Positions 48,048-50,147 of a stretch of DNA of 54,858 nucleotides are shown here, piece by piece (position 1 is the stretch's first letter; the number at the start of each line of letters is the position of its first letter). Under the pieces are notes generated by a model. That model was not told where the DNA came from, ran no database searches, and saw only the letters and a program-made list of their open reading frames with translations. The stretch is from assembly GCA_021846845.1 (NCBI GenBank), contig JAJZWB010000004.1:1-54858 (forward strand), written 5' to 3'. A program made the translations under genes and the position numbers. The stretch comes from Actinomycetes bacterium (GTDB taxonomy: Bacteria > Actinomycetota > Thermoleophilia > Solirubrobacterales > Solirubrobacteraceae).

Positions 48048-49070
48048 ATGGTCACCGTCGCCGTTGACGCCGGCGGGGCGGACCTGGGGCCGGCTGAGGT
48101 CGCGGCCGGTGCGGCGATCGCGGCGCGCGCCGGCGTGGGCGTGATCCTCTTCGGCCCGGCGGCCGAGATCGGGCCCGTGGTCGCCGGAGTGGAGGTGGTC
48201 GATGCGCCCGTGTCGATCGCCAAGGCGGCCGACCCGGCGTTCGCCGCGCGGGCGACTCCTGAGGCCTCGATAGTCCAGGCCGCGCGCGCGGTCGCCGACG
48301 GGCGCGCTCATGCGCTCGTGTCCGGCGGCTCGACCGGCTCGGCGCTCGCCGCAGCGCTGTTCAACATCCGCCGCGACCGCGGCATCCACCGGCCGGCTCT
48401 GGCGCTCCCGCTGCCGGTCCCAGGCGGCCGGCCGGTGCTGATGCTCGACGTCGGGGCCAACGTCAACTGCCGTCCCGAGCACCTGGTGCAGTTCGCCCAC
48501 ATGGGCTCGGCCTTCGCGCACGCGGTGCTCGGGATCGACTCGCCGCGGATCGCGCTGCTGTCCAACGGAGAGGAGGCGGTCAAGGGCACGGCCGAGCTGA
48601 TCGATGTGCACGAGCAGCTCTCGGGCGCGGCCGGCACGGGCCTGAGGTTCATCGGCAACATCGAGGGCACGCGACTGTTCGAGGACGCGGCCGACGTGGT
48701 CGTGACCGATGGCTTCACCGGCAATGTCGCGCTGAAGCTGATCGAGGGGGTCTCGGGTCGCACGATCCGGGCGATCCGCGACTCCGCCGTGAGCACCTCA
48801 CGCGGCCGCCTCGGCGGCCTGCTGCTCGGGCCCACGGTCCGCTCGCTCCGCGAGCAGCTCGATCCCGAGGCCACCGGCGGCGCCTACATGCTCGGCCTGC
48901 GACAGGTCGGCGTGGTGGCGCACGGCCGGTTCACACGGCGAGGGTTCGCCCGAGCGATCGAGGTCGCCGCGCGCGGCGTGCGCGAGGACGTGGTGGGCGC
49001 GACACGAGACGCGCTGCGGGCGGCCGGAGCGCTCCGCGCCCCGGCCGCGGTCGCCGCTCAGGACGGCTGA
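48048..49070 (+). CDS. plsX: Phosphate acyltransferase PlsX
   Basis: Makes acyl-phosphate from acyl-ACP for phospholipid synthesis. 340 residues with 'LVSGGSTGSALAAALF', 'LMLDVGANVNCRPEHLVQFA', 'VALLSNGEEAVKGT' (in raw sequence RIALLSNGEEAVKG), 'GNIEGTRLFEDAADVVVTDGFTGNVALK' (split over 200-227) and 'GGAYMLG', all typical. The N-terminal signature, normally A-V-D-A-M-G-G-D, is AVDAGGADLGP, a local divergence. Upstream DhaL/FakA kinase and downstream acpP support a lipid block. Confidence 0.94.
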   Translation: MVTVAVDAGGADLGPAEVAAGAAIAARAGVGVILFGPAAEIGPVVAGVEVVDAPVSIAKAADPAFAARATPEASIVQAARAVADGRAHALVSGGSTGSALAAALFNIRRDRGIHRPALALPLPVPGGRPVLMLDVGANVNCRPEHLVQFAHMGSAFAHAVLGIDSPRIALLSNGEEAVKGTAELIDVHEQLSGAAGTGLRFIGNIEGTRLFEDAADVVVTDGFTGNVALKLIEGVSGRTIRAIRDSAVSTSRGRLGGLLLGPTVRSLREQLDPEATGGAYMLGLRQVGVVAHGRFTRRGFARAIEVAARGVREDVVGATRDALRAAGALRAPAAVAAQDG

Positions 49071-49119: not shown

Positions 49120-49398
49120 ATGACCCGGGAGCAGGTTCTGTCACTCATCCGCGCGCACCTGGCAGCCGAGCTGGAGCTCGATCCGGCCGCGATCACCGAG
49201 TCGACCCGCCTGCGTGAGGACCTCGGGGCCGACTCGCTTGACCTGTACACGCTGGTGCAGGAGCTGGAGGACTCCTACGGGGTGCGGGTCTCCGACGAGG
49301 AGGCGGGGCGGATCCTGACCGTCGCGCAGGCGGTCGACTTCGTGATCGCCTCAGGGGTCCAGCCGGCCGCCGCGAGTCAGGGCACCGACCCTGAGTGA
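49120..49398 (+). CDS. acpP: Acyl carrier protein
   Basis: 92 residues, a four-helix bundle with the phosphopantetheine attachment Ser39 in LGADSLDL, acidic helix II (38-55) and a slightly longer tail. Its GTGA overlaps rnc, so it and RNase III are translationally coupled as in many bacteria. The holo form would be charged through CoA made by the coaD product. Confidence 0.94.
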   Translation: MTREQVLSLIRAHLAAELELDPAAITESTRLREDLGADSLDLYTLVQELEDSYGVRVSDEEAGRILTVAQAVDFVIASGVQPAAASQGTDPE

Positions 49399-50147
49399 CG
49401 CCGGACCGCGTTCGGCGCAGGTCCGGCAGCCCCTCCGGCGGCGGGAGGGCGGTCGATGCCTGCCAGGCCGACTCGGCCGGCGAGCTCGCGGAGCTGGTGG
49501 ACCGCCTGGAGCCGGAGCTGCGGCGCTCCGTGTTCACCCACTCCTCCTGGACCGAGCGCCGCTCGGAGTCCTACGAGCGGCTCGCGTTCCTGGGCGACAG
49601 CGTGCTGGGGCTCGCGGTGACCACTCACCTGTTCCCGCGCCTGGACGCCGAGCGGTTCGGAGCCGGGCGCCTCACCAAGATCCGCGCCCAGGCGGTCTCC
49701 GGCCGCTCCTGCCGGGCGGTCGCCGAGCGGATCGGGGTTCCGGAGCGGCTGCGGGCGTCCGCCCCCGACCCCGGCGCGCCTTCCGTCCGGTCGCTGATCA
49801 GCACCGAGCGTGTGCTGGCGTCCGTGATCGAGGCGGTGATCGGGGCCTGCTTCCTCGCCTTCGGCTACGAGACGACCGCCCGCGCGGTTGTCGCAGCGTT
49901 CGAGCCGGAGATCGCTGCGGCGCTCGAGCACTCGGTCGACTACAAGTCGGCGCTCCAGGAGCGTCTCGCGCGCCGCGGGGAGCTGGTCGCGTACGAGGTC
50001 GTATCGGAGCAGGGGCCTCCCCACGACCGGACCTTCACGGTCACGGCCGCCGTCGGCGGCCGGGCGATCGGCTCGGGTGCGGGACGCAGCAAGAAGGACG
50101 CCGAGCAGGAGGCGGCCCGCGCCGCGCTGACGCGGATGGGCCGATGA
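49395..50147 (+). CDS. rnc: Ribonuclease III homologue with degenerate active site
   Basis: Structured as RNase III: catalytic-fold domain (about 35-165) and dsRNA-binding domain (about 178-250, 'DYKSALQERLARRGELVAYE' and 'GRSKKDAEQEAARAAL'). GTG 49395 overlaps acpP. The signature box reads ERLAFLGDS (61-69), with Ala64 where E. coli has Glu41, and the second box is LASVIEAVIG (141-150), with Ser143 where E. coli has Asp114. The GAGRLT segment also lacks the usual EG (Glu65 region). Glu61, Asp68 and Glu146 are kept. Two of the four metal ligands of the bacterial enzyme are therefore absent. It may bind dsRNA without cutting, or cut weakly. Alignment is by eye. Confidence 0.85.
   Translation: MTPDRVRRRSGSPSGGGRAVDACQADSAGELAELVDRLEPELRRSVFTHSSWTERRSESYERLAFLGDSVLGLAVTTHLFPRLDAERFGAGRLTKIRAQAVSGRSCRAVAERIGVPERLRASAPDPGAPSVRSLISTERVLASVIEAVIGACFLAFGYETTARAVVAAFEPEIAAALEHSVDYKSALQERLARRGELVAYEVVSEQGPPHDRTFTVTAAVGGRAIGSGAGRSKKDAEQEAARAALTRMGR

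What the first reader, a model, noticed from the sequence alone, without database searches (positions are those of the whole stretch)
49575..49850. RNase III with two metal ligands missing
The two signature boxes of RNase III, ERLEFLGD and the A-D-x-x-E-A box, read ERLAFLGD and ASVIEA here. Relative to E. coli, Glu41 is Ala and Asp114 is Ser, and the EG of the EGxLTxxRA segment (Glu65 area) is AG. Glu38, Asp45 and Glu117 equivalents remain. The dsRNA-binding domain is well preserved. Such a protein could be a dsRNA chaperone or a weak nuclease, which would leave 16S/23S processing to other enzymes. The substitutions read cleanly from the sequence with no frameshift.
Basis: partly seen in the sequence, partly recalled or inferred. 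Interest (0 to 1): 0.62.

Follow-up and report, generated by a model that had tools for sequence, protein, structure and literature searches.

The report
RNase III with rebuilt active site
A whole order of soil bacteria (Solirubrobacterales) carries, as its only RNase III, a version that has lost half of the usual metal-holding acids but never the two indispensable ones, and has gained a positive residue where animal and yeast RNase IIIs have their catalytic lysine, so it is probably a working double-stranded-RNA cutter with a rebuilt active site rather than a dead enzyme.

Summary
The window's rnc (49395-50147, +) has Ala at E. coli Glu41, Ser at Asp114 and Ala at Glu65; Glu38, Asp45 and Glu117 remain, and the dsRBD is intact. 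It is not a private oddity. In 119 distinct proteins of the order Solirubrobacterales, E41 is always Ala, E65 is never Glu, and D114 is Ser (113) or Glu (6), while D45 and E117 are 119/119. Outside the order, E41 and E65 are invariant in 79 sequences. E41A arose once; E38 and E65 then drifted (12 and 10 changes) while D45 and E117 changed zero times. The order also gained a basic residue (R/K, 115/119) four residues before D114, where eukaryotic RNase IIIs have their catalytic lysine. It is the only RNase III-domain gene in 25/25 genomes tested, and these bacteria keep 16S and 23S processing stems with compensatory changes. Mini-III lacks the E41/D114 acids yet cleaves dsRNA; E. coli E41A and D114A keep weak activity, D45A and E117A do not. 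Most likely this is an active, rRNA-processing RNase III with a reduced, re-wired metal site. The chaperone reading is the rival. New variant of a known kind; activity itself is untested.

The parts
49395..50147 (+). rnc, RNase III (250 aa) with altered active site; only RNase III-domain gene found in this genome
49575..49598 (+). signature box ERLAFLGD (E. coli ERLEFLGD): E38 kept, E41->A, D45 kept
49662..49664 (+). Ala90 at E. coli E65 (RNA-contact acid), lost in the whole order
   Evidence: role from PMC9291653
49809..49811 (+). Arg139 at E. coli S110, seven residues before E117: order-specific basic residue (R/K 115/119) at the position of the eukaryotic catalytic Lys
   Evidence: eukaryotic numbering from PMC5357909
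49818..49835 (+). second signature box ASVIEA: D114->S143, E117 kept as E146
49968..49970 (+). Ala192 at E. coli Q165 (+3 G recognition); Ala is common across the class, not specific to the order
   Evidence: role from PMC9291653
49941..50132 (+). dsRNA-binding domain, intact
   Evidence: Pfam dsrm residues 183-246, 8.4e-19; invariant dsRBD columns
48048..49070 (+). plsX, upstream neighbour (gene run plsX-acpP-rnc-smc-ftsY)
   Evidence: TIGR00182
49120..49398 (+). acpP, overlaps the listed rnc start by 4 bases
   Evidence: NF002150
50215..53469 (+). smc, downstream neighbour
   Evidence: TIGR02168

Best explanation
The gene encodes the sole RNase III of this bacterium and it is still a dsRNA endonuclease that processes precursor rRNA, with a re-wired active site fixed once in the ancestor of Solirubrobacterales. 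Shown here: loss of E41, E65 and mostly D114; absolute retention of D45 and E117; gain of a basic residue at E. coli position 110; a single RNase III-domain gene per genome; conserved 16S and 23S processing stems. Inferred: D45 and E117 hold MgB; MgA, which has lost its E41 ligand, is held by E117, scissile-phosphate oxygens and water, so metal binding depends more on bound RNA; the new Arg, like the catalytic Lys of eukaryotic RNase IIIs, contacts the scissile phosphate or nucleophile and does the job of the third Mg2+ (MgC); removing the valley acids (E65, often E38) lowers repulsion and tightens RNA binding, offsetting the weaker metal site.
For: (1) Selective constraint: in the order D45 and E117 are invariant in 119/119; on the tree of 150 sequences, built without these columns, they change 0 times while E38 changes 12 and E65 10 times within the order. 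A pure RNA chaperone need not keep exactly the two indispensable residues. (2) Those two are the ones whose loss abolishes or nearly abolishes E. coli activity; E38A, E41A, E65A and D114A stay weakly active in excess Mg2+ in vitro (E65A is listed as inactive in vivo) (PMC8708148 Table 1). MgB is ligated by D45 and E117, MgA by E41 and E117, and D114 touches no Mg2+ in the E. coli structure (PMC9291653). (3) Precedent: B. subtilis Mini-III has LALAYIGD and STAFEAL, is described as lacking the E41/D114 equivalents (PMC4632822), and cleaves dsRNA at 1 mM MgCl2 (PMC4357697). (4) Gain: position 110 is Ser in 39/40 other actinobacterial families, N/S/T in most of the class, R/K in 115/119 of the order; it matches K112 of EhRNaseIII (E119 minus 7), and K->A there strongly reduces cleavage in Dicer enzymes (PMC5357909); eukaryotic Lys takes the place of MgC (PMC9291653). 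(5) Substrate kept: the 16S leader/trailer stem scores 44-57.5 against shuffle maxima of 26-39.5 in 12 of 13 order genomes with both flanks, and the 23S stem 36.5-63 against at most 29 in 9; 96.4% of pairs formed, with 13 and 6 two-sided changes, and 0/500 shuffles reaching the covariation score. The window genome has the 16S leader arm. (6) No other RNase III or Mini-III: 25/25 genomes hold exactly one match above cut-off. (7) Closest solved structure is the E. coli post-cleavage complex 7r97, Z 19.0, rmsd 2.9 over 211 residues.
Against: No activity is measured, and no metal or RNA was modelled; model coordinates could not be inspected. The published E. coli mutants are single changes; the combined E41/D114/E65 loss should be worse than each. 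The stems could be cut by another enzyme: RNase E/G and RNase J are present. The 16S stem is weak in one order genome (G039) and its trailer arm is off-contig in the window genome. The link between Arg110 and residue 114 (Fisher p 1.9e-6) rests on few independent events (two pairs on starred branches, sign test not significant).
Confidence: 0.76

Rival explanations
1. Pseudo-enzyme: the protein binds dsRNA (through the dsRBD and the RIIID valley) as a chaperone or ribosome-assembly factor, like mL44 in mitoribosomes or RNC1 in chloroplasts, and rRNA is matured by RNase E/G and RNase J.
For: Loss of one direct metal ligand, one second-shell acid and a valley acid; the NCBIfam RNase III equivalog model scores 156.2 against a cut-off of 166.25; mitoribosomal mL44 chains are among the structural matches; RNase E/G and RNase J present.
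Against: D45 and E117 never change in the order although E38 and E65 do; sister lineages with full E41/E65 also have RNase E/G and J, so these do not explain the loss; stems that form long dsRNA are maintained; a catalytic-type basic residue was gained.
Confidence: 0.15
2. Conditional or Mn2+-dependent nuclease: the reduced site has so low an affinity for Mg2+ that the enzyme works mainly with Mn2+ or only on RNAs it binds very tightly (a sub-case of an active enzyme).
For: E41A and D114A E. coli enzymes need excess Mg2+ (PMC8708148); EhRNaseIII is active with Mn2+ but not with Mg2+ in vitro (PMC5357909).
Against: Mini-III with the same losses works at 1 mM Mg2+ (PMC4357697).
Confidence: 0.2
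3. Sequencing, assembly or contamination artefact, or a decaying gene in one lineage.
For: The window genome is a 219-contig assembly.
Against: Same residues in 119 distinct proteins including closed genomes and named isolates such as Conexibacter sp. DBS9H8 and Svornostia abyssi.
Confidence: 0.01

Closest known systems
Bacterial class I RNase III (E. coli Rnc, PDB 7r97; A. aeolicus, 2nug)
   Same: Same RIIID + dsRBD layout and gene neighbourhood type; full-length structural match Z 19.0; 31% identity over 203 aa; D45, E117 and dsRBD kept.
   Different: E41->A, E65->A, D114->S, S110->R across nearly the whole order.
Mini-III (class IV RNase III, B. subtilis MrnC, PDB 4oun)
   Same: Ala at E41 and a non-acidic residue at D114, with Asp/Glu kept at D45/E117.
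   Different: Mini-III has no dsRBD and is barely alignable by sequence (only a 20-residue match); the likeness of the active site is convergent.
Eukaryotic RNase III (Rnt1p, KpDcr1, EhRNaseIII, Dicer)
   Same: Basic residue seven before the E117 equivalent (K112/E119 in EhRNaseIII, PMC5357909).
   Different: Eukaryotic enzymes keep the four acids and use Lys plus Asn; here it is Arg, with two acids gone.
EcEEQ 'bacterial Dicer' (engineered E. coli E38A/E65A/Q165A, PMC9291653)
   Same: E65 and Q165 are Ala here; in 16 of 119 order members E38 and E65 are both Ala.
   Different: EcEEQ keeps E41 and D114; Ala at Q165 is common in the class and not specific to the order.

Membership tests
RNase III (rnc, class I) | RIIID followed by a C-terminal dsRBD | tested here: met
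   Pfam PF14622, PF00636 and PF00035 above cut-off; full-length fold match
RNase III (rnc, class I) | four catalytic acids E41, D45, D114, E117 | tested here: not met
   only D45 and E117 present
RNase III (rnc, class I) | orthology: descent and genomic place among rnc genes | tested here: met
   order is one clade among actinobacterial RNase IIIs, support 99; plsX-acpP-rnc-smc-ftsY
RNase III (rnc, class I) | score above NCBIfam equivalog TIGR02191 cut-off | tested here: not met
   156.2 against 166.25 bits
RNase III (rnc, class I) | metal-dependent dsRNA cleavage | not testable with these tools
   needs a biochemical assay
Mini-III | RIIID without dsRBD | tested here: not met
   dsrm present
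Catalytically dead RNase III-like proteins (mL44, RNC1) | loss of the indispensable D45 and E117 | tested here: not met
   both invariant in 119/119 here; that mL44 and RNC1 lack them is from general knowledge, not tested (RNC1 domains are called inactive in PMC8708148)

The most novel reading that the evidence does not exclude
A bacterial RNase III in which one or more catalytic metal functions have been handed over to an arginine: a two-acid (D45/E117) site with an Arg at the eukaryotic catalytic-Lys position, combined with neutralised valley acids (E65A, often E38 lost) and Ala at Q165, so that it works as a natural counterpart of the engineered 'bacterial Dicer', with reduced sequence preference and multi-dimer cutting of long dsRNA into pieces of about 22 nt.
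Probability: 0.2. Interest if true: 0.75.

Novelty: new variant of a known kind. Interest (0 to 1): 0.55.

Why it matters
RNase III is a textbook two-metal (or three-metal) nuclease, and one recent structural paper predicts that all prokaryotic RNase IIIs use a third Mg2+ (PMC9291653). A whole order whose only RNase III has lost the E41 ligand and put an Arg at the eukaryotic Lys position is a natural test of that prediction and of which acids are truly needed. It also shows that missing 'catalytic residues' in an automatic annotation need not mean a dead enzyme, and it may give a reagent RNase III with altered product size or specificity.

Tried and rejected
Second rnc or Mini-III elsewhere in the genome: none above cut-off in 25 genomes; a second, canonical copy in G027 lies on a 3.8-kb contig of a genome with 7% contamination and is taken as contamination. 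Alternative acids replacing E41/D114 nearby: none found strictly conserved; E109 (104/119) is not invariant. Descent of the catalytic domain from Mini-III: rejected (tree). Leader/trailer duplex energy and gapped local alignment within 220 bases were uninformative because the leader arm often lies 230-350 bases upstream; ungapped search over 600-700 bases found it. Statistical test of Arg110 / residue 114 coupling on the tree: too few independent events. Literature search for an RNase III study in Conexibacter/Solirubrobacter: none found in the held library.

Full report
What is there. The window holds the usual actinobacterial run plsX - acpP - rnc - smc - ftsY. rnc is 49395-50147 on the + strand, 250 codons in one open frame. 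It has a full RNase III domain and a C-terminal dsRNA-binding domain. By alignment to E. coli, E41 is Ala, D114 is Ser and E65 is Ala; E38, D45 and E117 are kept.

Clade-wide, not private. The genome belongs to Solirubrobacterales: the nearest named relatives are Conexibacter, Solirubrobacter, Svornostia and Patulibacter. Of 61 genomes (the window's own plus its 60 nearest relatives) 57 have the gene. In 119 distinct order proteins E41 is Ala in all, E65 is A/P/I/S, D114 is S (113) or E (6); D45 and E117 are invariant. In 39 sequences from other families of the class, E41 and E65 are always kept while D114 is already A (24), N, G or E in most and D in 9. In 40 further sequences from other families of the phylum E41, E65, D45 and E117 are all kept and D114 is D (30) with some N. 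So D114 was relaxed early and repeatedly, and E41 and E65 were lost at the base of this order. On a tree built without these columns the order is one clade (support 99) and E41A needs one change. Within the order E38 changed 12 times and E65 10 times, D45 and E117 not once.

Why this looks like a working nuclease. In E. coli, changes at D45 and E117 abolish or nearly abolish activity, while E41A and D114A are weakly active in excess magnesium (PMC8708148). In the E. coli post-cleavage structure MgA is held by E41 and E117, MgB by D45 and E117, D114 touches no magnesium directly, and E38/E65 sit on the RNA-contact surface where their loss tightens RNA binding (PMC9291653). The order has lost what is dispensable and kept what is not. 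Mini-III offers a precedent: its sequence has Ala at E41 and Thr at D114, this loss has been remarked on (PMC4632822), and it cuts dsRNA at 1 mM magnesium (PMC4357697). The likeness is convergent: Mini-III has no dsRBD and hardly aligns.

A gained residue. Position 110 (four before D114, seven before E117) is Ser in 39 of 40 other actinobacterial sequences and N/S/T in most of the class, but R or K in 115 of 119 order members. The catalytic lysine of eukaryotic RNase IIIs has the same spacing: K112 with D116 and E119 in EhRNaseIII (PMC5357909). That lysine is reported to stand in for the third magnesium of bacterial enzymes (PMC9291653). All 113 members with S114 have R/K at 110; four of the six with E114 have lost it. 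The phylogenetic test has too few independent events to be significant, so compensation by Arg is a well-motivated inference, not a result.

The substrate is still there. In 12 of 13 order genomes with both 16S flanks, leader and trailer form a ~25-bp stem far above shuffles; a 13th (G039) is weak. The 23S stem is found in all 9 order genomes tested. The pairing is kept by compensatory change, and slid controls collapse. The window genome has the 16S leader arm at -332; its trailer arm is beyond the contig end. No second RNase III-domain gene above cut-off exists in any of 25 genomes. RNase E/G and RNase J are present in the order and in sister lineages alike, so they are possible but not specific substitutes.

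Structure. The predicted monomer (mean pLDDT 84; residues 4-25 below 50) is closest to the E. coli RNase III post-cleavage complex 7r97 (Z 19.0, 211 residues, 2.9 A) and other bacterial RNase IIIs; Dicer, Drosha, Rnt1p and mitoribosomal mL44 follow. The fold is intact. It does not by itself tell active from inactive.

Verdict. A member of RNase III by descent, layout and fold that fails one classical membership feature, the four-acid catalytic set. Most likely a working RNase III with a re-wired metal site. A chaperone or a Mn2+-type conditional enzyme remain possible until assayed.

Noticed in passing
window 49395-49475: The N-terminus of the listed rnc frame (about 27 residues) is modelled with low confidence and overlaps acpP by 4 bases; several relatives have in-frame stops just upstream of the conserved region, so the true start may be later or differ between species.
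   Followed up: partly
L126-L134 and L255-L260 (rRNA operons): 16S and 23S processing stems of these bacteria share a similar motif (C-[CU]UUGAAAACU...CAG) in both stems, mostly with a G.G mismatch opposite the first G; it looks like a common recognition or processing element.
   Followed up: partly
L088-L125 (class outside the order): D114 of RNase III is replaced by Ala, Asn or Gly in most families of the class that keep E41, so loss of this acid is widespread and predates the E41 loss.
   Followed up: yes
window 48048-49070: PlsX motifs look slightly unusual (VDAGGADLGP near the start, SGGSTG where I recall SAGNTG as usual); it still passes the plsX equivalog cut-off.
   Followed up: no
L060 (G027 contig C92): A second, canonical RNase III in one same-genus genome, on a 3.8-kb contig of an assembly with 7% contamination; probably contamination.
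   Followed up: partly
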